Below are positions 3,480 to 50,115 of a DNA stretch of 64,000 nucleotides, piece after piece; the stretch's first letter is position 1, and every line of letters starts with the position of its first letter. The translations under genes and the position numbers were made by a program. The DNA is from Limnospira fusiformis SAG 85.79 (GTDB lineage Bacteria; Cyanobacteriota; Cyanobacteriia; Cyanobacteriales; Microcoleaceae): positions 6,019,363 through 6,083,362 of the forward strand of contig NZ_CP051185.1 of assembly GCF_012516315.1 (NCBI RefSeq), written 5' to 3'. The notes under the pieces are model-generated. The model did not search any database and was not told the origin of the DNA. It worked only from the letters and a program-made list of their open reading frames with translations.

Positions 3480-3497
3480 CTCCCACCACAACCATTT

Positions 3498-3957: not shown

Positions 3958-3980
3958 TCCTAATGCTATAATTAGCTTAA

Positions 3981-4450: not shown

Positions 4451-4676
4451 ACAGGCATTAATAGATATTCTAAAGGCTATCCAGCAGATTATTAGTTATG
4501 TTGAGGATATCAAAAAAGAAGACTTGCAACAAGATGATGAAAAACAGGCGGCTATTTTATATAGGATTATTATTGTTGGGGAAGCAACTAAACGATTATC
4601 CCCTGAATTTCGTCAACAATACCCCATGATTCCTTGGCGGGAAATGGCGGGTCTACGAGATGTGGCATGGCATTAG
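4437..4676 (+). pseudogene. hepT: HepT-type HEPN toxin, truncated at its active site
   Basis: From ATG 4437 the product starts MAKDKQALIDILKAIQQI and contains the HEPN helix VGEATKRLSPEF.. followed by MAGLRDV. In intact HepT the next residues complete the RX4HXY motif, commonly read as RDVLIHDY. Here R-D-V is followed by A-W-H and a stop at 4676, giving 79 residues instead of about 110. The break coincides with the edge of an IS630 element, and no continuation is seen beyond that element. The catalytic His-X-Tyr and the AMP-acceptor tyrosine are therefore absent and the toxin should be inactive. Confidence 0.8.
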
Positions 4677-7181: not shown

Positions 7182-7233
7182 GCGACCGTCTTCTAGGGAT
7201 AGGTAAGACCTATGTGAATATTTTACACGCCGC
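7182..7233. repeat. 52-bp direct repeat, left copy
   Basis: Begins GCGACCGTCTTCTAGGGATA and ends TATTTTACACGCCGC. It matches 7640-7691 at all but about five positions. It starts immediately at the stop codon of the acyltransferase gene and precedes the small membrane-protein gene. Confidence 0.9.
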
Positions 7234-7287
7234 TTATTGAACATCTCTACATAATATAATAGTATTTGTAGAGTTTCTAATAAACTA

Positions 7288-7506
7288 ATGGCAGAACCGA
7301 AGAAAATCGGCATGATAATTTTAGGTATCATGTTTACACTTGTTCTCTTGAGTGGGATTTGGGAGATGTGGAGTGTATATCAATTTGAGAGTCGGCCAAC
7401 AAATATTGAAAGAGAAGCAGCTAAGTGGTTAAGAAATATGGAAAGAGAGAGAGAGAGAACCGAAAGACTTAGGCAGGAATACAGGGAAAGGCAGGAAGCG
7501 CAATGA
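7288..7506 (+). CDS. small single-span membrane protein with charged tail
   Basis: 72 residues: a short polar start (MAEPKKIG), one hydrophobic helix near residues 8-25 (MIILGIMFTLVLLSGIWEMW), then a highly charged helical tail rich in Arg and Glu (residues 45-72) likely to be a coiled or extended helix in the cytoplasm. I recognise no family. It lies between two 52-bp direct repeats, as if part of a small duplicated or mobile cassette. Translation is plausible but unproven. Confidence 0.5.
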   Translation: MAEPKKIGMIILGIMFTLVLLSGIWEMWSVYQFESRPTNIEREAAKWLRNMERERERTERLRQEYRERQEAQ

Positions 7507-7886
7507 GCTGGTTTTTAAATCTTCTTTGCCCCAAAAGTGGAAAGCGATCGCTTTTCGGGTTGAATACCTAGTGCCTTGTCTTGTCGTCACCAGGCGGCGC
7601 AGTTGTTTTGAGAAGACGATCGCCTATTCGGAGAAGTGGGCGACCGTCTACTAAGGATAGGTGAGACCTATGGGAATATTTTACACGCCGCCGGTCTAAA
7701 GTGAAAGTAGTTGCAGTTTGACGATTGGGGAATGGGGAGAGGCGATCGCGCTTGTGGTCGCCTCTTTTTTGGGCGGTTCACCGGTGACAGGAGAGGTTGT
7801 TGAGGCGGCGAGTCTTGGGGAGGTAAAACAAAATTAAGCACTCTGATTGTGCTCATAACAGAAATAAGACTCATTTTATTATTGGA
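7507..7886. other. intergenic region containing the second 52-bp direct repeat
   Basis: Holds the right copy of the direct repeat (7640-7691). A hairpin-forming GGCGATCGCGCTTGTGGTCG / GCCTCTTTTTT region lies at about 7740-7772; its T-run would favour plus-strand termination. No coding frame of merit is seen. Confidence 0.6.
7640..7691. repeat. 52-bp direct repeat, right copy
   Basis: Begins GCGACCGTCTACTAAGGATA and ends TATTTTACACGCCGC, in the same orientation as 7182-7233, 458 bp away. Confidence 0.9.
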
Positions 7887-8204
7887 GTGTTAAATAAATC
7901 GAGGCAAAACACTCTAATGATTTACATGATTTTAGATAGACCATACTGCAAAATTGGTTTCTCCAAACACCCCCAAAAAAGACTAAAACAATTACAGACT
8001 GGGAACCCTCGCCGATTAATATTATTGGCAGTATGTAACTTGCCTAATAGTTTTGAAAAAGAATTTCATCGTTTTTTTAAAAAATATAAATTCAATAATG
8101 AATGGTTTTTGATTCCACCCAATGAACTTGACTGCATTCTATTTGTATTGAAACTCATGGAAAATCAAGGGATTCAGTTAAAGTTGCCATTAGATGATTG
8201 CTAA
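7887..8204 (+). CDS. GIY-YIG-like (T5orf172/Mug113 type) protein
   Basis: 105 residues; the second methionine at 7917 (MIYMILDRPYCKIGFSK) gives a better fit to the family start. The IYMI...YCKIGFSK stretch, the R..LQTGNPRRL segment and the later EKEFHRFF..Y...EWF pattern match the compact GIY-YIG nuclease-like domain called T5orf172 or Mug113, found in phages and mobile islands. The substrate is unknown. It is AT-rich, short and isolated, consistent with an acquired gene. The assignment is by motif recognition. Confidence 0.65.
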   Translation: MLNKSRQNTLMIYMILDRPYCKIGFSKHPQKRLKQLQTGNPRRLILLAVCNLPNSFEKEFHRFFKKYKFNNEWFLIPPNELDCILFVLKLMENQGIQLKLPLDDC

Positions 8205-8205
8205 T

Positions 8206-8554
8206 CTAAAAAATCATCTTTCCCGTTCTAATGTTGTTAACTGATGGGGGATTGCGGTTGCCTTGGGAATACTTAGGCGATCGCATCCCGTCAGGTTGGC
8301 TGGTTTTAAGGCTCCGCTGAGTGGGTGAGTTGGCTGGTTTTAGAGGTAGGGCGATCGCATCTCCGACGGCTAACTGTAGAAGGTAGGTTGCCAAAAAGTT
8401 TCCCAGGTTTCCATTTTCCAGTAGGTGAGTTGAGAGGTAAGGCGATCGCATTTCCCAAAGATTTGACACTCTACGGCCTTCGGCCTTACTGGTTGACTGG
8501 TGAAAAGGATAGCGGGCGGTACACACCACTTATCGTAATGCACCACGCAGGGTC
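8206..8554. other. intergenic spacer with degenerate short repeats
   Basis: Contains repeated GTTGGCTGGTTTTA (about 8294 and 8330) and several GGCGATCGCAT copies. Frames crossing it on either strand have the composition of repeats rather than protein. No gene is supported. Confidence 0.6.
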
Positions 8555-9357
8555 CCGCAGTCGGCTAGGCTGGGAGTGGTTAAGTTTTGGTCGGGTTTCC
8601 TGGGTTCACATAACCTACTCCTGGTGCGATCGCTTTACACAACACAGTCGGACTCTAGTAGGTTGGCTGGTGCGATCGCTTTACACAACACAGTCGGACT
8701 CTAGTAGGTTGGGTGGAGCGATCGCGAAACCCAACACAGTCGGCTAGGCTGGGGGTGATTAAGTTTTTGTGGGGTTTCCTGGGTTCACATAACCTACTCC
8801 TGGTGCGATCGCTTTACACAACACACTCGGACTCTAGTAGGTTGGCAGGTGCGATCGCTTTACACAACACACTCGGACTCTAGTAGGTTGGGTGGAGCGA
8901 TCGCTTTACACAAAACACTCGGACTCTAGTAGGTTGGCAGGTGCGATCGCTTTACACAACACAGTCGGACTCTAGTAGGTTGGCAGGTGCGATCGCTTTA
9001 CACAACACAGTCGGACTCTAGTAGGTTGGCAGGTGCGATCGCTTTACACAACACACTCTGACTCTAGTAGGTTGGCAGGTGCGATCGCTTTACACAACAC
9101 ACTCTGACTCTAGTAGGTTGGGTGGAGCGATCGCGAAACCCAACACATTCGGCTAGGCTGGGAGTGGTTAAGTTTTGGTCGGGTTTCCTGGGTTCACATA
9201 ACCTACTCCTGGTGCGATCGCTTTACACAACACACTCGGACTCTAGTAGGTTGGCTGGTGCGATCGCTTTACACAACACAGTCGGCTAGGCTGGGAGTCG
9301 TTAAGTTTTGGTGGAGTTTCCTGGGTTCACATAACCTACTCCTGGTATGATCGCTCT
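8555..9357. repeat. 46-bp HIP1-bearing tandem array, copy 3
   Basis: The longest copy of the array: many 46-bp units with TGCGATCGCTTTACACAA, interspersed with long units carrying GTCGGCTAGGCTGGGAGTGG and the GGGTTTCCTGGGTTCACATA arm. It lies directly downstream of the WD40 gene ending at 9411. Confidence 0.95.
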
Positions 9358-9410
9358 CCTAATATGTGGGGTTTCCTGCTACTAATTCCGCCACTCAGAA
9401 ACCCCCTTTC

Positions 9411-11633
9411 TCAACCCCTCAACCCCTCCAACCGCAGGAAATGCACCACCCCCGCCTCATCCCCCGCCGCCACCGTCACCCCATCCGGTGCAACCGCACA
9501 GGAAGACATCGCACCATCCCCGGTAAAGGTGGCTAACTCTTTCCCCGTCTCCAAATCCCACAGTTTCAGGGTGTAATCCCTGGATGCCGAGACCGCTCGT
9601 TTCCCGTCGGGGGCGATCGCTACTCCCCCTACCCAGCTACTATGCCCGGTGAGGGTAGCCAGTTCCGTCCCCGTCTCCAAATCCCACAGTTTCAGGGTGT
9701 TATCATAGGATGCCGAGACCGCTCGTTTCCCGTCCGGGGCGATCGCTACTGCATTTACCCCGCCACTATGCCCGGTGAGGGTAGCCAGTTCCGTCCCCGT
9801 CTCCAAATCCCACAGTTTCAGGGTGTTATCATCCGATGCCGAGACGGCTCGTTTCCTGCCGGGGGCGATCGCTACTGCTAGTACCTGGCCACTATGCCCG
9901 GTGAGGGTAGCCAGTTCCGTCCCCGTCTCCAAATCCCACAGTTTCAGGGTTTCATCCTCCGATGCCGAGACCGCTCGTTTCCCGTCCGGGGCGATCGCTA
10001 CTGCTGTTACCCTGCTACTATGCCCGGTGAGGGTAGCCAGTTCCGTCCCCCTCTCCAAATCCCACAGTTTCAGGGTTTTATCATAGGATGCCGAGACCGC
10101 TCGTTTCCCGTCCGGGGCGATCGCTACTGCTCTTACCCCGCCACTATGCCCGGTGAGGGTAGCCAGTTCCGTCCCCGTCTCCAAATCCCACAGTTTCAGG
10201 GTGTTATCCCTGGATGCCGAGACCGCTCGTTTCCCGTCCGGGGCGATCGCTACTGCATTTACCCAGCGACTATGCCCGGTGAGGGTAGCCAGTTCCGTCC
10301 CCGTCTCCAAATCCCACAGTTTCAGGGTTTTATCATCGGATGCCGAGACCGCTCGTTTCCCGTCGGGGGCGATCGCTACTGCATTTACCGGGTCACTATG
10401 CCCTGTGAGGGTAGCCAGTTCCGTCCCCGTCTCCAAATCCCACAGTTTCAGGGTTTCATCCCACGATGCCGAGACCGCTCGTTTCCCGTCGGGGGCGATC
10501 GCTACTGCATTTACCCACCAACTATGTCCGCTGAGGGTAGCCAGTTCCGTCCCCGTCTCCAAATCCCACAGTTTCAGGGTGTTATCCCCCGATGCCGAGA
10601 CCGCTCGTTTCCCGTCCGGGGCGATCGCTACTGCATTTACCCCGCTACTATGCCCGGTGAGGGTAGCCAGTTCCGTCCCCGTCTCCAAATCCCACAGTTT
10701 CAGGGTGTTATCCTCTGAACCGAACAACGAGCCGGATGCCGAGACCGCTCGTTTCCCGTCCGGGGCGATCGCTACTGCCCATACCGTGTTACTATGCCCG
10801 GTGAGGGTAGCCAGTTCCGTCCCCGTCTCCAAATCCCACAGTTTCAGGGTGTTATCATCCGATGCCGAGACGGCTCGTTTCCCGTCGGGGGCGATCGCTA
10901 CTGCCATTACCCAGCCACTATGCCCGGTGAGGGTGGCCAGTTCCGTCCCCGTCTCCAAATCCCACAGTTTCAGGGTGTTATCATCGGATGCCGAGACGGC
11001 TCGTTTCCCGTCCGGGGCGATCGCTACTGCATTTACCCAGTCACTATGCCCGGTGAGGGTAGCCAGTTCCGTCCCCGTCTCCAAATCCCACAGTTTCAGG
11101 GTGTCATCCCAGGATGCCGAGACGGCTCGTTTCCCGTCCGGGGCGATCGCTACTGCTAGTACCTCGCCACTATGCCCTGTGAGGGTGCGAATTAGTGGCC
11201 CGCCGGGAGGGGTGAGATTAGCTGTGAGAGGACAAAACCAGGGTTTTCCACGCCATTGTTTTCCCTGTTCCAGTAAAGCCACAATTTCTGGATTCTCAAA
11301 GGACAGCAACCGCCCCCAAAGCTGCCCCGCCAGTTGGGTTGTATCCGAGGCTAAAATATGAGCCGATAGCCGCAACGTCCCCGCGATTAATTGCAGGGTT
11401 TCCGTCTGTTCCGGGTTCAGCAAGACATCCGAACTCATCGCCAAATCGTAATCTTCTATTAACGCTTGCACCCCGCACTCCGCCAGTTTTGCCTGCATAA
11501 AGTCAAAATCCGTCAGCACTTGGTGCAGCCGTGCAGTTTGGGCGGTGTTAACGAGATGCTTAGGGATTTCTTCTAAGGCATAGCGCCGCTTTTCTGGATA
11601 TAATTTGTTGAGCCGTTCAATAAAGCTGGTCAT
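9411..11633 (-). CDS. WD40 sensor protein of a STAND system (14 blades)
   Basis: 740 residues. Residues 1-140 resemble the helical linker that follows NACHT/NB-ARC domains in STAND proteins (RRYALEEIPKHLVN, ARLHQVLTDFDFMQAKL). Then come 13 almost identical 42-residue WD40 repeats (GHS..V.AVAIAPDGKRAVSAS.D.TLKLWDLETG) and one divergent final repeat, 14 blades in all, fitting two seven-blade propellers. Differences among repeats cluster at the residues after GHS, after V, and on either side of the Asp before TLKLWD. Repeat 4 carries a six-residue insertion (GSLFGSE). The gene has no NTPase of its own and follows a paralogue and a NACHT gene on the same strand; it likely senses a ligand for that NTPase. 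Confidence 0.9.
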   Translation of the reverse strand: MTSFIERLNKLYPEKRRYALEEIPKHLVNTAQTARLHQVLTDFDFMQAKLAECGVQALIEDYDLAMSSDVLLNPEQTETLQLIAGTLRLSAHILASDTTQLAGQLWGRLLSFENPEIVALLEQGKQWRGKPWFCPLTANLTPPGGPLIRTLTGHSGEVLAVAIAPDGKRAVSASWDDTLKLWDLETGTELATLTGHSDWVNAVAIAPDGKRAVSASDDNTLKLWDLETGTELATLTGHSGWVMAVAIAPDGKRAVSASDDNTLKLWDLETGTELATLTGHSNTVWAVAIAPDGKRAVSASGSLFGSEDNTLKLWDLETGTELATLTGHSSGVNAVAIAPDGKRAVSASGDNTLKLWDLETGTELATLSGHSWWVNAVAIAPDGKRAVSASWDETLKLWDLETGTELATLTGHSDPVNAVAIAPDGKRAVSASDDKTLKLWDLETGTELATLTGHSRWVNAVAIAPDGKRAVSASRDNTLKLWDLETGTELATLTGHSGGVRAVAIAPDGKRAVSASYDKTLKLWDLERGTELATLTGHSSRVTAVAIAPDGKRAVSASEDETLKLWDLETGTELATLTGHSGQVLAVAIAPGRKRAVSASDDNTLKLWDLETGTELATLTGHSGGVNAVAIAPDGKRAVSASYDNTLKLWDLETGTELATLTGHSSWVGGVAIAPDGKRAVSASRDYTLKLWDLETGKELATFTGDGAMSSCAVAPDGVTVAAGDEAGVVHFLRLEGLRG

Positions 11634-11659
11634 AATTCATGGGTGGAAATAGAACAATT

Positions 11660-11775
11660 TATAGTAGGTTGGATTTCGCGATCGCTTTACACAACACAGT
11701 CGGCTAGGCTGGGAGTGGTTAAGTTTTGGTGGAGTTTCCTGGGTTCACATAACCTACTCCTGGTACGATCGCTCT
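11660..11775. repeat. single long repeat unit between the two WD40 genes
   Basis: One long array unit: GTAGGTTGGATTTCGCGATC, then GTCGGCTAGGCTGGGAGTGG and the GGAGTTTCCTGGGTTCACAT arm. The flanks of this copy (CTCCTAATATGTGGGGTTTC and the downstream gene end) recur at 9356-9411, so the duplication unit comprised a WD40 gene plus adjoining repeat. Confidence 0.9.
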
Positions 11776-11828
11776 CCTAATATGTGGGGTTTCCTGCTAC
11801 TAATTCGGCAACTCAGAAACCCCCTTTC

Positions 11829-14087
11829 TCAACCCCTCAACCCCTCCAACCGCAGAAAATGCACCACCCCTGAACTATCCCCCGCCGCCACCGTCACCCC
11901 ATCCGGTGCAACCGCACAGGAAAGCATCACACCATCCCCGGTAAAGGTGGCTAACTCTTTCCCCGTCTCCAAATCCCACAGTTTCAGGGTTTTATCATCG
12001 GATGCCGAGACCGCTCGTTTCCCGTCCGGGGCGATCGCTACTGCATTTACCCCGCCACTATGCCCTGTGAGGGTAGCCAGTTCCGTCCCCGTCTCCAAAT
12101 CCCACAGTTTCAGGGTTTTATCCCTGGATGCCGAGACGGCTCGTTTCCCGTCGGGGGCGATCGCTACTGCCCATACCGTGTCACTATGCCCGGTGAGGGT
12201 AGCCAGTTCCGTCCCCGTCTCCAAATCCCACAGTTTCAGGGTTTTATCATCCGATGCCGAGACGGCTCGTTTCCCGTCGGGGGCGATCGCTACTGCATTT
12301 ACCCCGCTACTATGCCCGGTGAGGGTAGCCAGTTCCGTCCCCGTCTCCAAATCCCACAGTTTCAGGGTGTTATCCTCTGAACCGAACAACGAGCCGGATG
12401 CCGAGACCGCTCGTTTCCCGTCGGGGGCGATCGCTACTGCATTTACCCCGCTACTATGCCCGGTGAGGGTAGCCAGTTCCGTCCCCGTCTCCAAATCCCA
12501 CAGTTTCAGGGTGTTATCCTCTGAACCGAACAACGAGCCGGATGCCGAGACCGCTCGTTTCCCGTCCGGGGCGATCGCTACTGCCATTACCCAGCTACTA
12601 TGCCCGGTGAGGGTAGCCAGTTCCCTCCCCGTCTCCAAATCCCACAGTTTCAGGGTGTTATCAAAGGATGCCGAGACGGCTCGTTTCCCGTCGGGGGCGA
12701 TCGCTACTGCATTTACCCCGCTACTATGCCCGGTGAGGGTAGCCAGTTCCGTCCCCGTCTCCAAATCCCACAGTTTCAGGGTTTTATCCTTAGATGCCGA
12801 GACCGCTCGTTTCCCGTCCGGGGCGATCGCTACTGCCATTACCCAGCTACTATGCCCGGTGAGGGTAGCCAGTTCCGTCCCCGTCTCCAAATCCCACAGT
12901 TTCAGGGTTTTATCCACTGATGCCGAGACCGCTCGTTTCCCGTCGGGGGCGATCGCTACTGCCATTACCCAGCTACTATGCCCGGTGAGGGTAGCCAGTT
13001 CCGTCCCCGTCTCCAAATCCCACAGTTTCAGGGTTTTATCCACTGATGCCGAGACCGCTCGTTTCCCGTCGGGGGCGATCGCTACTGCATTTACCCCGCT
13101 ACTATGCCCGGTGAGGGTAGCCAGTTCCGTCCCCGTCTCCAAATCCCACAGTTTCAGGGTGTTATCCTCTGAACCGAACAACGAGCCGGATGCCGAGACC
13201 GCTCGTTTCCCGTCCGGGGCGATCGCTACTGCATTTACCGGGCCACTATGCCCTCTGAGGGTAGCCAGTTCCGTCCCCGTCTCCAAATCCCACAGTTTCA
13301 GGGTGTTATCAAAGGATGCCGAGACGGCTCGTTTCCCGTCGGGGGCGATCGCTACTGCTAGTACCCAGCTACTATGCCCGGTGAGGGTAGCCAGTTCCGT
13401 CCCGGTCTCCAAATCCCACAGTTTCAGGGTGTCATCCCAGGATGCCGAGACCGCTCGTTTCCCGTCCGGGGCGATCGCTACTGCTCTTACCTCGTCACTA
13501 TGCCCGGTGAGGGTAGCCAGTTCCGTCCCCGTCTCCAAATCCCACAGTTTCAGGGTGTTATCCCCCGATGCTGAGACGGCTCGTTTCCCGTCGGGAGCGA
13601 TCGCTACTGCATTTACCTCGTCACTATGCCCGGTGAGGGTGCGAATTAGTGGCCCCCCTGGAGGGGTGAGATTAGCTGTGAGGGGACGAAACCAGGGTTT
13701 TTTCTGGGCTTGTTTCGCCTGTTCCAATAAAGCCACAATTTCTGGATGATCAAAAGACTGCAACCGCCCCAGAAGTTGCCCCGCTAGTTGGGTCTTATCC
13801 GGTTCTAAAATATGAGTCGATAGCCGCAACGTCCCCGCGATTAATTGCAGGGTTTCCGTCTGTTCCGGGTTCAGCAAGACATCCGAACTCATCGCCAAAT
13901 CGTAATCTTCTATTAACGCTTGCACCCCGCACTCCGCCAGTTTTGCCTGCATAAAGTCAAAATCCGTCAGCAATTGGTGCAGCCGTGCAGTTTGGGCGGT
14001 GTTAACGAGATGCTTAGGGATTTCTTCTAAGGCATAGCGCCGCTTTTCTGGATATAATTTGTTGAGCCGTTCAATAAAGCTGGTCAT
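11829..14087 (-). CDS. WD40 sensor protein of a STAND system, tandem paralogue (14 blades)
   Basis: 752 residues, nearly identical to the protein encoded at 9411-11633 over the 140-residue helical N-terminus and the last 40 residues. It too has 13 near-identical WD40 repeats plus one divergent terminal repeat, but the order of variable residues differs and the GSLFGSE insertion occurs in three repeats (4, 9 and 10) instead of one. Blade number is conserved although blade content is not, which suggests constraint to two closed propellers with shuffled surfaces. It is the first WD40 gene after the NACHT gene, separated from it by 384 bp of repeat array. Confidence 0.9.
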   Translation of the reverse strand: MTSFIERLNKLYPEKRRYALEEIPKHLVNTAQTARLHQLLTDFDFMQAKLAECGVQALIEDYDLAMSSDVLLNPEQTETLQLIAGTLRLSTHILEPDKTQLAGQLLGRLQSFDHPEIVALLEQAKQAQKKPWFRPLTANLTPPGGPLIRTLTGHSDEVNAVAIAPDGKRAVSASGDNTLKLWDLETGTELATLTGHSDEVRAVAIAPDGKRAVSASWDDTLKLWDLETGTELATLTGHSSWVLAVAIAPDGKRAVSASFDNTLKLWDLETGTELATLRGHSGPVNAVAIAPDGKRAVSASGSLFGSEDNTLKLWDLETGTELATLTGHSSGVNAVAIAPDGKRAVSASVDKTLKLWDLETGTELATLTGHSSWVMAVAIAPDGKRAVSASVDKTLKLWDLETGTELATLTGHSSWVMAVAIAPDGKRAVSASKDKTLKLWDLETGTELATLTGHSSGVNAVAIAPDGKRAVSASFDNTLKLWDLETGRELATLTGHSSWVMAVAIAPDGKRAVSASGSLFGSEDNTLKLWDLETGTELATLTGHSSGVNAVAIAPDGKRAVSASGSLFGSEDNTLKLWDLETGTELATLTGHSSGVNAVAIAPDGKRAVSASDDKTLKLWDLETGTELATLTGHSDTVWAVAIAPDGKRAVSASRDKTLKLWDLETGTELATLTGHSGGVNAVAIAPDGKRAVSASDDKTLKLWDLETGKELATFTGDGVMLSCAVAPDGVTVAAGDSSGVVHFLRLEGLRG

Positions 14088-14112
14088 AATTCATGGGTGG
14101 AAATAGAACAAT

Positions 14113-14470
14113 TTATAGTAGGTTGGGTGGAGCGATCGCGAAACCCAACACAGTCGGCTAGGCTGGGGGTGATTAAGTTTTTGTGGGGTTTCCTGGGTTC
14201 ACCAAACCTACTCCTAATGCGATCGCTCTAATATGTTGGGTTTCCTGGGTTCACCAAACCTACTCCTAATGCGATCGCTCTAATATGTTGGGTTTCCTGG
14301 GTTCACCAAACCTACTCCTAATGCGATCGCTCTAATATGTTGGGTTTCCTGGGTTCACCAAACCTACTCCTAATGCGATCGCTCTAATATGTTGGGTTTC
14401 CTGGGTTCACCAAACCTACTCCTAATGCGATCGCTCTAATATGTTGGGTTTCCTGGGTTCACATAACCTA
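14113..14470. repeat. 52-bp HIP1-bearing tandem array between NACHT and WD40 genes
   Basis: After one long unit (14118-14220) there are five 52-bp units starting at 14229, 14281, 14333, 14385 and 14437 (TAATATGTTGGGTTTCCTGG ... ATGCGATCGC). The array's edge supplies the stop codon of the NACHT gene, so it abuts that reading frame directly. Confidence 0.95.
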
Positions 14471-16270
14471 CTAATTCTCATCTGAACCATACAAACCCGC
14501 CCACAAATTATCAACGATCGCCTGTTCAATATCCCGCAAAGATATCCCCGCTTTTTGTACCGTTCGCTTCTTGAATAAAAAGTCCTGAAAACTCTTGTGG
14601 TAAATACTATAAACCTCATTATCCTCGACAATTCGATGGCGCAAAAACTGCTCCCATTCATCCAAAACATCCTGCACCGTTAACGGGTCTTCCTCCGCAA
14701 AATCCGCCAACAAATCGCAGGACACAGGTTTACAAGTTTTTGACAACAAATAGATGATTTTCAACTTCGTCCGAGGTAACGGCTTGGTCACCATTCCCAT
14801 ACGCCGCCAATGTTGCTCATAATATTGTTCCAAACCCTTGGGCAAATTTGCCAAGTTCAAATCGGCATATCTCCCCTTCTCAATGTCATTCAGAACATAC
14901 TTTAAATACATGAAATTGCTTTCGCTATTCTCTGCCAAAAAGTCGATAAATTCCGCCTCTGTCACTCCTTGGGCAGTCAGCCAGCGTTGGATAGGTTCCC
15001 GTTGACAGCGATACCGAATAAACCGTCGGATATCTTCTAAATTGGCTTGATAATATTTATCGGACATCATATCAAACTCCTGCTGTGGTGCCGACACTAC
15101 CAAAGGTAACAACTCCGGGCGTTTGGTGAGGATAAAATAAACCCCCCTGGGTAAATTTTCGGGCAGATAAAGCACATTTGCCCTCGAATTTTGGGTGCTT
15201 AAATCTACTTCATCCAAGGCATCCACGGCAATCACTAAACGGTCAGTTTTTGCCGCCGCTTCCGTTAATAACTTGCTTAAAAAATTGCCATTGCGGGTAT
15301 TATCAGGATGCAGGGGTAAGTCATAAGCTAACCCATACCTTGTCATCAGTTGCTCGCAAATATTTTTCAGGAAATCTTCCGTGCTGGTGCGGTTTTCTGA
15401 CAGGATATTAAAATAAGCCAAACATCCCGTTTGCTGCACATATCGCGCTAACAACGCGCTCTTACCCACGCCGGGGTCGGCTTCTATGATAAAATAACCA
15501 TTGGCTTGTCTTCGGCAAAATTCCTCAATGGCATTAAAGACGAATTCCCTCCCCAAAAACTCCTGGGTTTTTTCCTCAATAAAAGCGGCAAAATCTGCGG
15601 GAACGGCGGCAGTCCCTTTTAAGGTTTTCAGCAATTGATTAAACCGTTCATCTAACCCCTGACAAGAGGCGATAAATGTATCCACTCCCTCATCAATTCT
15701 CCCCCGAATTTGCTGGAGTTCCTGGTCGATATTCCCCACTTTCCCGCTAATGTCGGTCAGAATATCGTGGGTTAAGGTATTAAAAACTACCTGATTATAT
15801 TTTATTTCTAAGCGGAAATAATGCACTAATCCGGGTAAATATAAGTTGCGAAATGTGTTCAGCAACACGGGGGGCGCTTCCCTTAGCCACTGGTGTTCGG
15901 CTTCTAGCCGCTGCATCAATTTAGTCTGAATTGCCTTCAGTTCACTGCCTTGCCAACTTCCCTCACTGCCTTGGGGCTGTTCCCCTTCAACGATTATTAA
16001 GATTTGTTGCCCATCCTGCTTAATCTGGTCAATTCGTGCTATAATTAAGGGTTGATTACGCTTCCATTCCGGTGTTTTCTCACAGCAGCCACAAATATCA
16101 TTTAGGATGCGCTCATGGGCTGTTAGCAGTGCTTTTTCAATGTCATGATTACGTTCCCCAGCCTTACGCTGCGCCCACTTATGACATTCGGAACCGACGA
16201 CTCCCAACCCAGCACTAGCAAATAATGACAACATCTCAACAATCATGGTTTTACACCCCATCCCACACAT
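14471..16270 (-). CDS. NACHT-type STAND NTPase, lacking a fused sensor
   Basis: 599 residues (a start at 16246, MIVEML, is an alternative). Residues 1-230 form a helical N-terminal region of unknown role, with cysteines and a hydrophobic start. The NTPase follows: Walker A ADPGVGKSALLARY near 263-276 and Walker B RLVIAVDALDEVD near 340, then the winged-helix-like part ending YSIYHKSFQDFL and LWAGLYG. STAND ATPases oligomerise when a C-terminal sensor binds a trigger. Here the chain ends exactly at a repeat array, and the WD40 sensors with the expected linker follow as separate genes. It therefore looks like the NTPase half of a split NACHT-WD40 protein. No effector domain is recognised. Confidence 0.85.
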   Translation of the reverse strand: MCGMGCKTMIVEMLSLFASAGLGVVGSECHKWAQRKAGERNHDIEKALLTAHERILNDICGCCEKTPEWKRNQPLIIARIDQIKQDGQQILIIVEGEQPQGSEGSWQGSELKAIQTKLMQRLEAEHQWLREAPPVLLNTFRNLYLPGLVHYFRLEIKYNQVVFNTLTHDILTDISGKVGNIDQELQQIRGRIDEGVDTFIASCQGLDERFNQLLKTLKGTAAVPADFAAFIEEKTQEFLGREFVFNAIEEFCRRQANGYFIIEADPGVGKSALLARYVQQTGCLAYFNILSENRTSTEDFLKNICEQLMTRYGLAYDLPLHPDNTRNGNFLSKLLTEAAAKTDRLVIAVDALDEVDLSTQNSRANVLYLPENLPRGVYFILTKRPELLPLVVSAPQQEFDMMSDKYYQANLEDIRRFIRYRCQREPIQRWLTAQGVTEAEFIDFLAENSESNFMYLKYVLNDIEKGRYADLNLANLPKGLEQYYEQHWRRMGMVTKPLPRTKLKIIYLLSKTCKPVSCDLLADFAEEDPLTVQDVLDEWEQFLRHRIVEDNEVYSIYHKSFQDFLFKKRTVQKAGISLRDIEQAIVDNLWAGLYGSDEN

Positions 16271-26330: not shown

Positions 26331-27734
<1,404 letters not shown>

Positions 27735-27740
27735 TTACAG

Positions 27741-27818
27741 CTTCCCTACGCCGGTACTAGCCGGACTCAGGTTCCAAGGGTGTCTCTCAGCCTGGACTTC
27801 GCAGGCACCCCTAGCTTG
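27741..27818 (-). promoter_or_regulatory. TPP riboswitch (THI element)
   Basis: Read on the minus strand the segment has the conserved order AGGGGTGCC, CTGAGA, ACCC, GAACCTGA, CCGG.TA.TACCGGCGTA and GGGAAG, the hallmarks of the THI-box aptamer. It lies about 25 bp upstream of the thiC start, consistent with control of translation initiation or termination by thiamine pyrophosphate. Confidence 0.96.
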
Positions 27819-27954
27819 ATGAATGTTTAGTTGATGATGTTAGCACTTATGTTGAGATTTGATCTAGGGTCTGTTAACAATTATTTATGTATTTTTCTGT
27901 AGAGTGCATCAGATTTGGCTATGGTCTGACGCACTCTAGGGGACTTCTGAAGGA

Positions 27955-28608: not shown

Positions 28609-30876
28609 TTATGATGAAGATTCATCCATGGGAAGAGTTGGTGCTGATGTAGGACTCACGGTGCGTCCAACGATCGCCTTATGACTTTCCCGTGAAGAAA
28701 GCATTTCAACAGCGATCGCTTCTACCTGTATCTCCAAGGTGCCATAGATAATGTCGAGGTCAACCGTTGCTTCAATTTGATCGAAGCCGTTGGGTGAGAA
28801 CTCGGTAATCCAACGCGGCCCGTCTACAATATTGCGGGACTGCCGATCATATATCCATATTTTGACATATATGCGGGGCAAGTTGTCGGGGATTTGCACG
28901 CGAACTTTTAAAGACTTTCCGGCGGTAGGATTAACGGTGAGGATATCTAAAATCGGAACCGGAATTTCTTGGTCTTCGGGTATGACAGATGGTGTTGTGG
29001 TGCTACTCCCTCCTCTCAAGGTGCTATAAGGCCTCCCCATCCCTGAAAATGGCCTGCTAGAGGGGGGTTCGGTAGTCAACCCCTTCCCTTGGGGAAATAC
29101 CGCAGAATCCGCCCTGGTTTGGGGGAAGACAACAGGAGGTTCGAGGGATTCATAATCTACGACAATTTCCTCGGCTTCCAATTCTGTGACCAAGGGGCTG
29201 AATTCATAATTAGGTGGTGGGGTCTGATTCTCGTCTGGCACTAATGGTTCTGCTGGTGAGGAAACGGCTGTGTCATCAGAAGCTGAGGAAGATGCTTGTT
29301 TCATCCAGTGAGACAGATCTCGATCTTTGGCTAGGGAACTTAATCGACTCAAAAATCGCTCTTCTAAATTCAGATGAGGTAAAGCCTTTTTCGCTGCCGG
29401 GGAAGTGGCTGTGGAAGTATTGGTATGGGTCGCATCTGTTGGCTCTGGTGATGAGTCGATAGGGGTTTCTGGTGGGTCTGTATTGAGCAGGTCAGTATTG
29501 CTGTCTTCGTTGGGGTCTGTTTGACCGGCACCCTCCTCGGGTGTTTTGGCGACAGAACCCTCGGATGTAGAGGTGGCTAATGGTAGGGTAGGGGATGCTG
29601 GCGGTTTTGGGTTGACGAATGGAAGTGCGATCGCCTCTGAATTGGGACTCGAAGGGATGTTAAGGATATTAGACCAGGGGTGGGGTTCTGTCTGTGCTGT
29701 TGGATCAGCAGAGATAAAATTGCCAAAGCTGGGCAATTCTAGGGCAGTCTGAGGCTTACCTTGAGCATTTACAGGCTGGCTTTGTGTTTCTTTATTTACT
29801 ACGGCTAAGGGGGCTGGCTCCGCCGCTGGGAGTGGTATAAATGAATTTTCGACTAGGGGTTCGTTGGGTTGAGCGTCAATTTCTAGCTCCTCTGGTAATG
29901 GGTCTAAAAACTGTTCGACCAACATGGTGATATTGAAAGAATTGCGGACGGGGGGATGCTGATCACTGTAAAAAACGACCTCTCCCAAAACTAATCGGGT
30001 TTTGCATTCAAAGGGTACATAAATAGCTGCGGAAAATGGCACAGGTAAAACAGACTGTGGTACGGGTTGGCGAACATCATAGAGAATTTCGGAGGCTTGA
30101 GGCGATCGCAAACATATCTGTAATTGAGGATTAGAAACTACCATAGAGGTGATAGCTTCCATATAAGGGTCAGAGTCCGGGTCAGATTTAATCCTAATCT
30201 GTCCAGATAGTAAAACGGCGCTACCAAACTCGACCACATAGCTATGGCGTTCTAGGATAAGTTCTATGGAAATATCCTCTGCGGTCAAGTCTGCGGTTTC
30301 GTTTATGGCGACACTACTGCTTAGTTCCTGTGCGATCGCGGTTTCTTGGTTGGCTTCTGGCTGAGGTTCCCCAGGGTAGAGGTCTGTAAGATTAGAATCA
30401 CTGGTTTTTTCTGATGGTGTCGTGGGTGTCACCGACTCTAAATCCGTCTGTTGTGGTAGGCTATCTTGAATGGCTGACCCATCCTCCAATATTTCCTCAG
30501 AGTCAATCTCAGAGTCAATCTCAGTGTTGGCTAGTACCTGTAGTTTCATTGTGGCACGCCAAGTATTTCCTAAAAGTCCGGCTCTTAAATCTGGCGAACA
30601 GGAAAACTCCCAAATTCCGGGTTTGAGGCTAGTATAGGGGATTACGACCATTAAACCCTCTGAGTTCATATAACTTTTCAGGGTCTTAATGCGGCGCACT
30701 GGGGGGTCTTCGTCTATAGCGTCATAAACAATCCTAATTTCAATTTCCTGATCTTGATGGGACCCACGACAAACAATGCGATACCGACCTTCTAACACCT
30801 GAACATCAGGAGACTCCAGGGGTAGCCAAGTGTTATCCCCTTCCCGTTGTAGTAGGAATTCTAGGTTATCCATCAT
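28609..30876 (-). CDS. large low-complexity protein with beta-rich ends, unknown function
   Basis: About 755 residues from ATG 30876 (MMDNLEFLLQREGDNTWLPL); a start at 30906 adds ten residues. The N-terminal 120 residues (YRIVCRGSHQDQEIEIRIVY ... GIWEFSCSPDL) and the C-terminal 110 residues (PILDILTVNPTAGKSLKVRV, YVKIWIYDRQSRNIVDGPRW) look like beta-sandwich domains. The middle 350 residues are Pro, Thr, Ser and Glu rich and probably disordered. No signal peptide is seen. I do not recognise the family beyond its being typical of conserved cyanobacterial hypothetical proteins. Confidence 0.65.
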   Translation of the reverse strand: MMDNLEFLLQREGDNTWLPLESPDVQVLEGRYRIVCRGSHQDQEIEIRIVYDAIDEDPPVRRIKTLKSYMNSEGLMVVIPYTSLKPGIWEFSCSPDLRAGLLGNTWRATMKLQVLANTEIDSEIDSEEILEDGSAIQDSLPQQTDLESVTPTTPSEKTSDSNLTDLYPGEPQPEANQETAIAQELSSSVAINETADLTAEDISIELILERHSYVVEFGSAVLLSGQIRIKSDPDSDPYMEAITSMVVSNPQLQICLRSPQASEILYDVRQPVPQSVLPVPFSAAIYVPFECKTRLVLGEVVFYSDQHPPVRNSFNITMLVEQFLDPLPEELEIDAQPNEPLVENSFIPLPAAEPAPLAVVNKETQSQPVNAQGKPQTALELPSFGNFISADPTAQTEPHPWSNILNIPSSPNSEAIALPFVNPKPPASPTLPLATSTSEGSVAKTPEEGAGQTDPNEDSNTDLLNTDPPETPIDSSPEPTDATHTNTSTATSPAAKKALPHLNLEERFLSRLSSLAKDRDLSHWMKQASSSASDDTAVSSPAEPLVPDENQTPPPNYEFSPLVTELEAEEIVVDYESLEPPVVFPQTRADSAVFPQGKGLTTEPPSSRPFSGMGRPYSTLRGGSSTTTPSVIPEDQEIPVPILDILTVNPTAGKSLKVRVQIPDNLPRIYVKIWIYDRQSRNIVDGPRWITEFSPNGFDQIEATVDLDIIYGTLEIQVEAIAVEMLSSRESHKAIVGRTVSPTSAPTLPMDESSS

Positions 30877-30974
30877 TAGCACCTCTGCCAACATCCTGGG
30901 TATCATTTGCTGTTGAGACTAGCACTATGGGTGCTGTTGGTGATTATAGGTGCTTTTGGTGATTATAGGCGATC

Positions 30975-31290
30975 GCTTCAACCTAATCATACCAGGACAC
31001 TTTTTCCACGGGCAGTTTTTCCGCTTCAAAATCCGAAGGATACCATTTTAGATCTCGTTAGTTCGTAAGAGCTGGCTACTTGTTGCCATTGTTTCTGCGC
31101 GATCGCATATTTCGCTATCCAGAATGGTTCAATCGTCACTCGGTGCTGTGGTTTTTCTGTATGCAAAATTTTCCACATTTCCAGGTGAACCCATCAGAAA
31201 TCTTCCCCCAGGGATAAACACCATTTCTAGGGTGACTTCATCTCTCAGATTTTCTATGAAATTTTGGGCTTGACTTCCGCGACGACTCAT
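30975..31290 (-). pseudogene. formylglycine-generating-enzyme-like (FGE-sulfatase) pseudogene
   Basis: From ATG 31290 the frame reads MSRRGSQAQNFIENL, then LEMVFIPGGRFLMGSPGN, the start of the SUMF1/FGE fold. It stops at 31129, but the next frame continues HRVTIEPFWIAKYAIAQKQW, and a third carries DLKWYPSDFEAEKLPVEKVS followed by WYD, all expected in that order in the family. At least two frameshifts are thus needed, and the C-terminal two-thirds is missing. The gene is dead. Such domains in cyanobacteria are often fused to STAND or caspase-like proteins. It abuts the 166-bp array. Confidence 0.75.
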
Positions 31291-31296
31291 TCTTAG

Positions 31297-33270
31297 TTGA
31301 GGAAAAAATCAAGCATATAGCCATGTTACCCCCACGGCTTCAATTATAGCGATCGCCATCCCGGTTGTCAACCCCCCACCCCTCTCGTCGCGCCGATTTT
31401 TTGTTAAGTTTTGTTAAGTTGAAGTTGGGGGGCTATGAATTGTGGCTTAACCTGAAGGTAGGTTGAGGAAAAAATCAAGCATATAGCCATGTTACCCCCA
31501 CGGCTTCAATTATAGCGATCGCCATCCCGGTTGTCAACCCCCCACCCCTCTCGTCGCGCCGATTTTTTTTTAAGTTTTGTTAAGTTGAAGTTGGGGGGCT
31601 ATGAATTGTGGCTTAACCTGAAGGTAGGTTGAGGAAAAAATCAAGCGTATAGCCATGTTACCCCCACGGTTTCAATTATAGCGATCGCCATCCCGGTTGT
31701 CAACCCCCCATCTCTCTCGTCGCGCCGATTTTTTGTTAAGTTTTGTTAAGTTGAAGTTGGGGGGCTATGAATTGTGGCTTAACCTGAAGGTAGGTTGAGG
31801 AAAAAATCAAGCGTATAGCCATGTTACCCCCACGGTTTCAATTATAGCGATCGCCATCCCGGTTGTCAACCCCTCATCTCTCTCGTCGCGCCGATTTTTT
31901 GTTAAGTTTTGTTAAGTTGAAGTTGGGGGGCTATGAATCGTGGCTTAACCTGAAGGTAGGTTGAGGAAAAAATCAAGCGTATAGCCATGTTACCCCCACG
32001 GCTTCAATTATAGCGATCGCCATCCCGGTTGTCAACCCCTCATCTCTCTCGTCGCGCCGATTTTTTGTTAAGTTTTGTTAAGTTGAAGTTGGGGGGCTAT
32101 GAATCGTGGCTTAACCTGAAGGTAGGTTGAGGAAAAAATCAAGCGTATAGCCATGTTACCCCCACGGCTTCAATTATAGCGATCGCCATCCCGGTTGTCA
32201 ACCCCTCATCTCTCTCGTCGCGCCGATTTTTTGTTAAGTTTTGTTAAGTTGAAGTTGGGGGGCTATGAATTGTGGCTTAACCTGAAGGTAGGTTGAGGAA
32301 AAAATCAAGCGTATAGCCATGTTACCCCCACGGTTTCAATTATAGCGATCGCCATCCCGGTTGTCAACCCCTCATCTCTCTCGTCGCGCCGATTTTTTTT
32401 TAAGTTTTGTTAAGTTGGGTGATACTTGGGGGGGCTATGAATCGTGGCTTTACCTGAAAGTAGGTTGAATAAAAAATCAAGCATATAGCCATGTTACCCC
32501 CACGGCTTCAATTATAGCGATCGCCATCCCGGTTGTCAACCCCTCATCTCTCTCGTCGCGCCGATTTTTTTTTAAGTTTTGTTAAGTTGGGTGATACTTG
32601 GGGGGGCTATGAATCGTGGCTTTACCTGAAAGTAGGTTGAATAAAAAATCAAGCATATAGCCATGTTACCCCCACGGCTTCAATTATAGCGATCGCCATC
32701 CCGGTTGTCAACCCCTCATCTCTCTCGTCGCGCCGCTTTTTTTGTTAAGTTTTGTTAAGTTGGGTGATACTTGGGGGGCTATGAATCGTGGCTTTACCTG
32801 AAAGTAGGTTGAATAAAAAATCAAGCGTATAGCCATGTTACCCCCACGGTTACAATTATAGCGATCGCCATCCCGGTTGTCAACCCCCCATCTCTCTCGT
32901 CGCGCCGATTTTTTTTTAAGTTTTGTTAAGTTGGGTGATACTTGGGGGGGCTATGAATCGTGGCTTAACCTGAAGGTAGGTTGAGGAAAAAATCAAGCAT
33001 ATAGCCATGTTACCCCCACGGCTTCAATTATAGCGATCGCCATCCCGGTTGTCAACCCCTCATCTCTCTCGTCGCGCCGATTTTTTGTTAAGTTTTGTTA
33101 AGTTGAAGTTGGGGGGCTATGAATCGTGGCTTAACCTGAAGGTAGGTTGAGGAAAAAATCAAGCATATAGCCATGTTACCCCCACGGTTTCAATTATAGC
33201 GATCGCCATCCCGGTTGTCAACCCCCCACCCCTCTCGTCGCGCCGATTTTTTTTTAAGTTTTGTTAAGTT
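31297..33270. repeat. tandem array of 12 non-coding 166/172-bp units
   Basis: Unit starts (TTGAGGAAAAAATCAAGC or TTGAATAAAAAATCAAGC) fall at 31297, 31463, 31629, 31795, 31961, 32127, 32293, 32465, 32637, 32809, 32981 and 33147, the last partial. Seven steps are 166 bp and four are 172 bp, the latter having GGGTGATACTT where the former have GAAGTT. Each unit contains one HIP1 site, a GGTTGTCAACC palindrome, a GTTAAGTT-TT-GTTAAGTT or near-identical direct repeat, and a potential long stem GGCTAT/ATAGCC flanked by G and C runs. No coding frame persists. The final unit runs into the 3' end of the Pepco-like gene. Confidence 0.97.
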
Positions 33271-33620
33271 TTGCGACGTTTAAACGTAAGTTTGATAGTC
33301 CCATGATCGAAGTTGTCACTACAGAGGCTAACTTCTCCGTTGCCATTAATTCTGACAGACAATTCCACCTGGTCAAGCTGCATGGGAGATTTTTGGGAGT
33401 TTCCAGAGGCTTGCTGCATTTGAAACGCTTGCTGTTCCGCTTGTAGAAATACATCACCAATTACTAATAAAAATTGACTCATATTTTGCTGCATTTTGTG
33501 CGCCGGGACTGCTACCCTGTGGGTCTGTGATTCTGTAGGAGTGTCAGGGGATGTTGAGGGGTTAGGGGAATCTTGGGTAATAATCCAGATACTTTTGGGA
33601 ATTTGGATAATTTCTGACAT
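33264..33620 (-). CDS. Pepco-domain-like protein
   Basis: 118 residues. Features are an early IPKSIWIITQD strand, a central helical segment (MSQFLLVIGDVFLQAEQQAF), then the strongly conserved-looking MQLDQVELSVRINGNGEVSL and a basic end GTIKLTFKRRK. This order matches my memory of Pepco, a small domain described in bacterial conflict systems with STAND or trypsin partners. No partner gene is intact nearby, though an FGE-like pseudogene lies across the array. The function is unknown. The C-terminal codons overlap the edge of the 166-bp array. Confidence 0.5.
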   Translation of the reverse strand: MSEIIQIPKSIWIITQDSPNPSTSPDTPTESQTHRVAVPAHKMQQNMSQFLLVIGDVFLQAEQQAFQMQQASGNSQKSPMQLDQVELSVRINGNGEVSLCSDNFDHGTIKLTFKRRKT

Positions 33621-33944
33621 AGACTAATGGGGGATGATGGTTAATTATTAACTTAATGTGATGATTGTAGCTTAAATATGGTGGTTGATGTCTAATGATT
33701 GAGATATGAAGAAGGAAGCCGAAAAGATTGAGTTTCACTAGGTTAATGGGTCTGGTGGGGGCGGTGCAATATATGCGATCGCATACAAGATAGACTTTCA
33801 CAAGGCGCGCCATGGCAAAAATATCACCGTGGGGAACATCTCCGATTTGGGAATATTTAACTATTTTGGGTGTCAAAAAAAAGCGTCAGAAAAATCTTAT
33901 ATCTCTGACGCAGGCTAATTGTTAATGTATGAAACCCACAACAT
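33621..33944. other. intergenic region carrying a minus-strand terminator
   Basis: Apart from the terminator at 33875-33911 the region shows no gene. A reverse frame crossing 33562-33876 overlaps the Pepco-like gene in another frame and has no protein-like features. AT-rich DNA near 33640-33700 may carry the promoter of the Pepco-like gene. Confidence 0.5.
33875..33911 (-). terminator. rho-independent terminator of the SLH gene
   Basis: On the minus strand GCGTCAGA pairs with TCTGACGC (33904-33911 with 33883-33890) and is followed by a run of eight T. It lies about 35 bp past the stop of the SLH-domain gene. Confidence 0.85.
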
Positions 33945-41667: not shown

Positions 41668-42060
41668 ATCAAAGTATCTGTAGGGGCGGGTTCACCGGGC
41701 TATATCATAGTCACAGATAAACCACATAAACCCGCCCTATCCCCGCCCTATCAAAGTATCTGTAGGGGCGGGTTCACCGGGCTATATCATAGTCACAGAT
41801 AAGCCATATAAACCCGCCCTATCCCCGCCCTATCAAAGTATCTGTAGGGGCGGGTTCACCGGGCTATATCATAGTCACAGATAAGCCATATAAACCCGCC
41901 CTATCCCCGCCAGATAAACCCGAAATATTCTAATTATCGGTGGGTGGGGGCGGGTTTATCAAAATTCCGGTGGGGAAGTTTCATTGACGGCAGAACCCGC
42001 CCCTACATTATCGGTGGGTGGGGGCGGGTTTATCAAAATTCCGGTGGGGAAGTTTCATTG
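41668..42060. repeat. REP-like arrays left of the RAYT gene (82-bp x3, 74-bp x2)
   Basis: Three 82-bp units start at 41670, 41752 and 41834 (CAAAGTATCTGTAGGGGCGG ... AAACCCGCCCTATCCC). Two 74-bp units start at 41938 and 42012 (CGGTGGGTGGGGGCGGGTTT ... GCAGAACCCGCCCCTAC). Both contain GGGCGGGTT paired with AACCCGCCC, giving stable hairpins. The last unit runs into the 3' end of the RAYT gene. Confidence 0.95.
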
Positions 42061-42593
42061 ACGGCGGAGGCGCGCCCCAACGGGGTGGTAATGTTTTGGG
42101 AAATGGGAAATTGATGGGATGGGTGCATTTCGTCTTGGTTCCAATTATAGGGATTATTGACGATATATTCTCGAATTTTTTGTAATGCGTTTTCGTCCCT
42201 AATTATATGTTCATAATATCCCCTTTGCCATACAGGAACTTTAGAAAGCGATCGCAATTGATTAATCCTACGGCTAGAAAAAGTTTTGAAACCTTGAACA
42301 ACTTTTGAGAGAGTATGGCTGTGGTCTGTTAAGATAATGATACCATGAATATGATTAGGCATAATCACAAAACTATCTAACTGAATTAAAGGGTAAACTC
42401 TGGTTAGGTTAAACCAATTGAATTTAACCACTTCACCATAACAGTTTAGCATTACAGTTTGGTCTTTAATTTCACCCAATAAGCATTGTTTATGATAAAT
42501 ACAAATTGTGACAAAGTATGCCCCCGGTTGACTGTAATCATATCCTCGAAGACGAATTGATTGGCGGTTATGAATATCAGGATTGTATTTCAT
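42033..42593 (-). CDS. REP-associated tyrosine transposase (RAYT, Y1 family)
   Basis: 186 residues. The HUH motif is in FVIMPNHIHGIIIL near residues 73-86 and the catalytic Tyr in KIREYIVNNPYNW near 140-152; YDYSQPGAYFVTICIYHKQ near the start is the usual first strand. RAYTs are single-copy relatives of the IS200 transposase that cut single-stranded REP palindromes. Here the gene is bracketed by GGGCGGGTT hairpin arrays, and its last 15 or so codons (PLGRASAVNETSPPEF) are repeat sequence. It looks active and probably maintains these repeats. Confidence 0.92.
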   Translation of the reverse strand: MKYNPDIHNRQSIRLRGYDYSQPGAYFVTICIYHKQCLLGEIKDQTVMLNCYGEVVKFNWFNLTRVYPLIQLDSFVIMPNHIHGIIILTDHSHTLSKVVQGFKTFSSRRINQLRSLSKVPVWQRGYYEHIIRDENALQKIREYIVNNPYNWNQDEMHPSHQFPISQNITTPLGRASAVNETSPPEF

Positions 42594-42604
42594 ATTGATA
42601 AACC

Positions 42605-43462
42605 ATCATTAATCATCTGTAGCGGCGTGTTCACGCCCGGTATATGGTAATTGGTAGGGGCGGGTTCACCGGGCTATATCATAGTCACAGATAAACCACA
42701 TAAACCCGCCCAATCAAAGTATCTGTAGGGGCGGGTTCACCAAACTATATCATAGTCACAGATAAGCCATATAAACCCGCCCTATCCCTGCCCAATCAAA
42801 GTATCTGTAGGGGGGCGGGTTCACCAAACTATATCATAGTCACAGATAAGCCATATAAACCCGCCCTATCCCTGCCCAATCAAAGTATCTGTAGGGGCGG
42901 GTTCACCAAACTATATCATAGTCACAGATAAGCCATATAAACCCGCCCTATCCCTGCCCAATCAAAGTATCTGTAGGGGCGGGTTCACCGGGCTATATCA
43001 TAGTCACAGATAAACTACATAAACCCGCCCTATCCCCGCCCAATCAAAGTATCTGTAGGGGCGGGTTCACCGGGCTATATCCTAGTCACAGATAAGCCAT
43101 ATAAACCCGCCCTATCCCCGCCAGATAAACCCGAAATATCCTAATTATCGGTGGGTGGGGGCGGGTTTAGTTAAATTCCGGTGGGGAAGTTTCATTGGCG
43201 GCAGAACCCGCCCCTACATTATCGGTGGGTGGGGGCGGGTTTAGTTAAATTCCGGTGGGGAAGTTTCATTGACGGCAGAACCCGCCCCTACATTATCGGT
43301 GGGTGGGGGCGGGTTTAGTTAAATTCCGGTGGGGAAGTTTCATTGGCGGCAGAACCCGCCCCTACGGCTTTTTCGGGTGGGGGCGGGTTTAGTTAAATTC
43401 CGGTGGGGAAGTTTCATTGACGGCAGAACCCGCCCCTACGGCTTTTTCGGGTGGGGGTGGTG
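42605..43462. repeat. REP-like arrays right of the RAYT gene (82-bp, then 74-bp units)
   Basis: About six 82-bp-type units (42650-43130) are followed by four to five 74-bp units (43149, 43223, 43297, 43371, 43445), in the same order as on the left side. Units vary mainly in the loop (CACCGGGCTATATC or CACCAAACTATATC). A first truncated unit has TTCACGCCCGGTATATGGTA, a variant also found alone at 51340-51468. Confidence 0.95.
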
Positions 43463-49706: not shown

Positions 49707-50115
49707 AGAGTCATTTACAGGGGTGTGTCAGTTTTGAAGTATCCCGTCATCATGACTACAGCCTGTTCAGAAATGATCTGATCATCTCTCAAAGTCCCTC
49801 TCCCTCTCTGGGATCCAGATTTAGGGTGAGGGGAATGTATTAAGCGACTGGTGAACAAGCTGTATTTCACCGTCGCTGGCGCACCCTACTAATCAAAGTC
49901 CCTCTCCCTCTCTGGGATCCAGATTTAGGGTGAGGGGAATGTATTAAGCGACTGGTGAACAAGCTGTATTTCACCGTCGCTGGCGCACCCTACTAATCAA
50001 AGTCCCTCTCCCTCTCTGGGAGAGAGATATAGGGTGAGGGGAATGTATTAAGCGACTGGTGAACAAGCTGTATTTCACCGTCGCTGGCGCTACTAAATGT
50101 AATTAACAATATTGA
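49707..50115. repeat. three 104-bp tandem repeats in an intergenic region
   Basis: Units start at 49791, 49895 and 49999, each with AAAGTCCCTCTCCCTCTCTG, then AGGGTGAGGGGAATGTATTA and CGTCGCTGGCGCACCC. The CCCTC/GAGGG parts can pair as a hairpin. Two units have GGATCCAGATTT where the third has GGGAGAGAGATAT, the likely original palindrome. No frame is conserved. It differs from the other arrays in lacking HIP1. Confidence 0.95.

What the first reader, a model, noticed from the sequence alone, without database searches (positions are those of the whole stretch)
31297..33270. Twelve-unit 166/172-bp non-coding tandem array with conserved stem and phased direct repeats
Seen: 12 units at steps of 166 (seven) or 172 (four) bp. 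All contain HIP1, the palindrome GGTTGTCAACC, a GTTAAGTT direct repeat at one helical turn, and a potential stem GGCTAT/ATAGCC with adjoining G and C runs enclosing AACCT/AGGTT. Changes between units fall mainly in loops and at the 6-bp length switch. Known: no repeat family I can name fits. Inference: it is a protein-binding or titration array, or a set of tandem small RNA units.
Basis: partly seen in the sequence, partly recalled or inferred. Interest (0 to 1): 0.75.

Follow-up and report, generated by a model that had tools for sequence, protein, structure and literature searches.

The report
Twelve-copy promoter repeat, possible small RNA
The array in this spirulina genome is a row of twelve copies of a tiny transcription unit, each with a perfect promoter and the same RNA start; it belongs to a repeat family not listed in Rfam that has spread to a hundred or more copies in relatives such as Okeania and Trichodesmium.

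Summary
The array is real: 12 units at 31296-33270, seven steps of 166 bp and four of 172. On the minus strand every unit carries a perfect sigma-70 promoter (TTGACA-N17-TATAAT). These are 12 of only 34 such sites in the 6.4-Mb genome. Each is followed at the predicted start by a conserved ~40-nt sequence, GTGGGGGTAACATGGCTATAYGCTTGATTTTTT.... The 'palindrome' is the -35 box, HIP1 lies in the promoter spacer, and the proposed stem has no support. It is absent from 28 genomes of one sister genus, from phages and plasmids, and matches no Rfam family. It has no ORF, supported RNA fold, terminator or shared neighbour gene, and avoids divergent gene pairs. Best reading: tandemly amplified stand-alone transcription units making non-coding RNAs with a common 5' end, organised like (not related to) the 12-copy NsiR1 array. 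A selfish promoter-carrying repeat is nearly as likely. No RNA data were available.

The parts
31296..33270 (-). whole array: 12 tandem promoter-leader units, transcribed leftwards (minus strand)
31296..31461 (-). unit 1: promoter 31343-31371, predicted start 31335, conserved leader 31296-31335
   Evidence: perfect TTGACA-N17-TATAAT; leader match; start position inferred
31462..31627 (-). unit 2: promoter 31509-31537, predicted start 31501
31628..31793 (-). unit 3: promoter 31675-31703, predicted start 31667
31794..31959 (-). unit 4: promoter 31841-31869, predicted start 31833
31960..32125 (-). unit 5: promoter 32007-32035, predicted start 31999
32126..32291 (-). unit 6: promoter 32173-32201, predicted start 32165
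32292..32463 (-). unit 7 (172 bp): promoter 32339-32367, predicted start 32331
32464..32635 (-). unit 8 (172 bp): promoter 32511-32539, predicted start 32503
32636..32807 (-). unit 9 (172 bp): promoter 32683-32711, predicted start 32675
32808..32979 (-). unit 10 (172 bp): promoter 32855-32883, predicted start 32847
32980..33145 (-). unit 11: promoter 33027-33055, predicted start 33019
33146..33270 (-). unit 12, the most upstream, truncated on its promoter-upstream side: promoter 33193-33221, predicted start 33185
31129..31290 (-). remnant of an FGE-sulfatase-domain gene directly downstream of the last promoter; the PCC 9108 copy matches Pfam FGE-sulfatase, the window copy is further truncated
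   Evidence: sequence read by eye; Pfam PF03781 E=2.3e-13 for the PCC 9108 copy
33264..33620 (-). upstream neighbour gene, same strand, Pepco domain protein (118 aa); its stop lies at the edge of the array
   Evidence: Pfam PF24393 E=1.2e-18

Best explanation
The array is twelve tandem copies of a small stand-alone transcription unit read on the minus strand. Each unit has a consensus sigma-70 promoter from which transcription is predicted to start at GTGGGGG; the first ~40 nt of the RNA (GUGGGGGUAACAUGGCUAUAYGCUUGAUUUUUU...) are its conserved, unstructured, non-coding working part. The units belong to a dispersed family present at many chromosomal sites in this genome and its relatives; tandem amplification raises the dose of RNAs that share this 5' end, and the RNA most likely acts in trans by base pairing through that single-stranded 5' end. 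Shown: the promoters, the conserved leader, the family and its distribution, the excess conservation of promoter and leader, the lack of an ORF, of a supported fold and of a shared neighbour. Inferred: that the promoters are active, that the RNA is discrete, and that it acts by pairing.
For: Perfect promoters: 12 in the array against 0.01 expected in the window and 12 of 34 in the whole genome (1 for the reversed control pattern). Near-consensus promoters recur upstream of the leader in dispersed copies in Limnospira/PCC 9108 (10.9 of 12 matches, shuffled control 6.6) and in Planktothrix, Baaleninema and ESFC-1 (10.6 against 7.1). Promoter and leader are less changed than the rest of the unit. 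At an orthologous site in Hydrocoleum, Okeania and Trichodesmium the leader and promoter spacing stay while the upstream flank is unalignable. No ORF is conserved; some copies lose the ATG. No supported fold. Neighbour genes differ, and elements lie between convergent rather than divergent genes (40 against 5), as expected of independent units rather than promoters of neighbours. The layout matches the known 12-copy NsiR1 array, in which copies have individual promoters (PMC9045159).
Against: No RNA data. No intrinsic terminator on the transcribed strand of the array, so a discrete small RNA is not predicted; transcripts could run through. Copy numbers from 1 to 100 or more per genome look more like an amplifying repeat than a regulatory RNA. 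In Okeania and Trichodesmium the promoter is weak by consensus (8.0 of 12 against 7.3 in shuffles). The constant TTGA-N8-TCAA dyad suggests a protein site. No target was identified.
Confidence: 0.42

Rival explanations
1. A selfish or neutral promoter-carrying dispersed repeat (like a MITE or other very small mobile element) that amplifies in tandem by unequal crossing-over and spreads between intergenic sites; the promoter is a by-product or helps its spread.
For: Very uneven copy number (0 in 28 genomes of one genus, 1-6 in Planktothrix, 25 here, at or near the limit of 100 scored in several Okeania/Trichodesmium-group genomes). Varied neighbours and avoidance of divergent regions. Several Limnospira copies are flanked on both sides by TTGATTTTTTATTCAACA. 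Copy number differs between orthologous arrays (12 against 3).
Against: No inverted ends, target duplication or associated transposase seen. No clean empty site found. Promoter and leader are conserved at an orthologous site in three genera while flanks are not.
Confidence: 0.36
2. A protein-binding or titration array: the TTGA-N8-TCAA dyad just downstream of each promoter (and another upstream copy in several loci) is an operator, so the array multiplies a regulated promoter or soaks up a regulator.
For: TGA and TCAA are invariant in 59 aligned copies, although the search pattern partly imposed this. In two copies (L030, L046) the centre is flipped (TGACGAAAAAATCA, TGACTAAAAAATCA) with the half-sites kept. 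Planktothrix copies form near-perfect palindromes such as TTGACTAATTAGTCAA.
Against: The dyad is imperfect in Limnospira and Okeania (TTGATTTTTTATTCAA). In the window array itself most units read TTGATTTTTTCCTCAA. The conserved leader also includes GGGG and GGCTATAC, which the dyad does not explain. No regulator is known.
Confidence: 0.14
3. A promoter amplifier for the downstream genes (the FGE remnant and the 765-aa gene at 28609-30906).
For: The array and both downstream reading frames are on the minus strand with no predicted terminator on that strand within 30900-33700. At some other loci the element lies 50-66 bp upstream of a gene in the same orientation, conserved over three genera for a phosphopantetheinyl-transferase-like gene.
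Against: In most loci the gene downstream of the element points the other way (80 opposed to 46 same), and the gene next to the array is a broken remnant.
Confidence: 0.08

Closest known systems
NsiR1 (RF02399), heterocyst-specific sRNA encoded in 12 tandem copies in Nostoc PCC 7120
   Different: no match of the array to RF02399; this genome has a separate NsiR1 match elsewhere (L029 3469-3526); the NsiR1 model has a hairpin and U-tail, this family shows neither; sigma-70 consensus promoter rather than DIF1; many dispersed copies
Very small dispersed or mobile repeats of bacteria (SDR elements of Nostoc, REP/REPIN, MITEs; from general knowledge)
   Same: short, intergenic, multi-copy, lineage-restricted, no coding capacity
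   Different: no inverted terminal repeats or stable hairpin; carries a conserved promoter and transcript start; forms tandem arrays
CRISPR arrays
   Same: regularly spaced repeats in a cyanobacterium
   Different: the whole 166-bp unit is repeated, there are no variable spacers, and every unit has a promoter

Membership tests
NsiR1 (RF02399) | covariance-model match | tested here: not met
   no Rfam match up to E=10 in 31200-33400
NsiR1 (RF02399) | 3' hairpin followed by U-run | tested here: not met
   no terminator-like site on the minus strand of the array; fold z-score -0.07
NsiR1 (RF02399) | tandem copies with individual promoters | tested here: met
   12 perfect promoters, one per unit; activity not tested
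Any Rfam RNA family | match at gathering threshold | tested here: not met
   only a TPP riboswitch elsewhere in the window; dispersed copies unmatched
MITE / IS-derived element | terminal inverted repeats and target-site duplication | tested here: not met
   copies compared by eye show flanking direct, not inverted, repeats in Limnospira and none in Planktothrix
MITE / IS-derived element | precise empty site in a relative | tested here: inconclusive
   orthologous loci differ by wider rearrangement
CRISPR array | short repeats with unique spacers | tested here: not met
   the whole unit repeats at 96%
Small-ORF / leader peptide repeat | conserved reading frame | tested here: not met
   ATG absent or frame broken in many copies
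Trans-acting small RNA | discrete transcript with a target | not testable with these tools
   no transcriptome available

The most novel reading that the evidence does not exclude
A previously undescribed family of transcription units with a common 5' RNA tag has multiplied to a hundred or more copies in Okeania and Trichodesmium, in tandem arrays, and accounts for part of the unusually large non-coding transcriptome of Trichodesmium.
Probability: 0.3. Interest if true: 0.75.

Novelty: new variant of a known kind. Interest (0 to 1): 0.6.

Why it matters
Trichodesmium is described as having 40% non-coding DNA, most of it transcribed, for reasons not well understood (PMC4649490). A single promoter-bearing repeat family shared with Okeania, Planktothrix and spirulina gives a concrete, searchable candidate for part of that. 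The 12-unit array also supplies a third of the perfect-consensus promoters of an industrially grown cyanobacterium, and an array whose copy number differs between relatives (12 against 3) is a natural dosage experiment.

Tried and rejected
Conserved micro-ORF (MAIRLIFYST from the ATG in the leader, or a GVxRLYA frame): rejected, because the ATG and frame break across copies. Reverse-strand protein-like signal in Okeania units: frames are not kept. RNA hairpin UUGAYUUUUURRUCAA: no covariation; 0 pairs predicted. NsiR1 membership: rejected. Transposase or shared neighbour gene: none found. Phage or plasmid origin: no matches. Empty insertion sites: searched at several Limnospira and Planktothrix loci, inconclusive. 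The primary transcriptome paper of Trichodesmium and the Arthrospira NIES-39 genome paper are not held in the library, so transcription starts could not be checked.

Full report
What is there. The window lies in G000, a 6,423,694-bp single-contig genome; the size and single closed chromosome fit the published Limnospira fusiformis genome of 6.42 Mb (PMC8085491), which is an inference. The array at 31296-33270 has twelve units, seven steps of 166 bp and four of 172 bp. HIP1 and GGTTGTCAACC are in every unit; the GTTAAGTT pair is intact in seven of twelve.

The other strand explains it. Read on the minus strand, every unit contains TTGACAACCGGGATGGCGATCGCTATAAT, a perfect sigma-70 promoter with a 17-bp spacer. 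The window holds 12 such sites, all in the array, against 0.01 expected. The whole genome holds 34, so the array has about a third; the reversed control pattern occurs once. Seven bases after the -10 box comes GTGGGGGTAACATGGCTATAYGCTTGATTTTTT, where the transcript is predicted to start. No terminator-like site was found on this strand.

A dispersed family. The first 39-54 bases of the unit (plus strand) recur elsewhere in the genome, often as small arrays with about 106-bp spacing, and in other genera. Aligned on the minus strand these copies share the promoter, its distance to the leader within a base or two in Limnospira, and the leader itself. A sequence-only model finds 26 copies in this genome at E<1e-7. 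One hit, in a Defluviitaleaceae bin (L124), is probably chance. In Okeania and Trichodesmium the copies form tandem arrays with a period mostly near 280 bp. Of 386 genomes sampled across the phylum, 6 match at E<=1e-4, one of them outside the family; viral contigs, phages and plasmids give none.

Signs of constraint. Within the array 3 of 69 promoter-plus-leader columns vary, against 21 of 104 others (p = 0.003); between the window and the PCC 9108 array 2 of 69 differ, against 25 of 104 (p = 8e-5). Tandem arrays homogenise, so the second figure carries more weight. At a phosphopantetheinyl-transferase-like gene in Hydrocoleum, Okeania and Trichodesmium the element is kept at the same place while the sequence upstream is not alignable. 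Promoters score 10.9 and 10.6 of 12 in the Limnospira and Planktothrix-type sets against 6.6 and 7.1 in shuffles, but only 8.0 against 7.3 in the Okeania/Trichodesmium set, where a conserved TTGCAT-N17-TATMAT-like arrangement is seen instead. The promoter finder picks the best site in a range, so the shuffled control is the fair baseline.

What it does not have. No conserved ORF: the ATG in the leader is lost in several copies and the reading frames break. No supported RNA structure: 0 predicted pairs on 59 aligned copies, and the only candidate hairpin does not covary; single units fold as shuffles do. No Rfam family. No common neighbour gene and no transposase. Elements are found between convergent genes 40 times and divergent genes 5 times; where flanking genes run the same way the two orientations are about equal (33 and 27), so the promoter is not usually aimed at a gene. 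Some of these sites are orthologous copies and are not independent.

How it most likely works. The best reading is that each unit is an independent transcription unit whose RNA begins with a shared unstructured ~40-nt 5' end, multiplied in tandem, like the NsiR1 array, where 12 copies have individual promoters (PMC9045159). It is not an NsiR1 member: this genome has a separate NsiR1 match next to another copy of the family (L029). The nearly equal rival is a promoter-carrying selfish repeat; uneven copy number and varied neighbours favour it, and the lack of ends, transposase and empty sites weakens it. A third reading, an operator array, draws on the constant TTGA-N8-TCAA dyad, whose centre is flipped in two copies. 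The scan pattern and the in-script patterns partly imposed this dyad, so its constancy is overstated for the Okeania set.

Limits. No transcriptome was available; transcription starts are inferred from promoter positions. Genomes were sampled one per species. Match counts at 100 are limits of the search.

Noticed in passing
31129-31290 and 33264-33620, minus strand: The array separates a Pepco-domain gene from a remnant of an FGE-sulfatase gene, possibly the relic of an NTP-dependent conflict system (domain names from Pfam; the link to conflict systems is from general knowledge).
   Followed up: partly
L029 3469-3526 (own genome 4225469-4225526), minus strand: An NsiR1 (RF02399) match lies about 160 bp from, and divergent to, two dispersed copies of the repeat family.
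   Followed up: partly
277-14472, 41668-43439, 49789-50090: Several other tandem arrays in the window: 46-bp and 52-bp units with HIP1, and 82-bp, 74-bp and 104-bp units; a 126-bp repeat at 9542-13640 looks like coding repeats.
   Followed up: no
27726-27822, minus strand: TPP riboswitch, just upstream of a ThiC-like gene at 26331-27716 (gene name by resemblance).
   Followed up: no
L205 (own genome 4154500-4155700): At the site where PCC 9108 has two copies of the family, this genome has a different tandem repeat array (AAACCGGGTTTCT units with TTGACAAACTTATGGCGATCGC), suggesting one array replaced or overgrew the other.
   Followed up: partly
L026 3738-3955 and L206: Copies of the family lie about 150 bp upstream of a gene whose product reads like PsbI (by resemblance) in both Limnospira-group genomes.
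   Followed up: no
Okeania/Trichodesmium units, e.g. L101, L090: The ~280-bp units also share two TTTTCATYTTSTGAAGCTYC-like motifs and an A-run followed by TCGGCGCG upstream of the promoter; the A-run plus GC-rich motif is also seen in Limnospira copies.
   Followed up: partly
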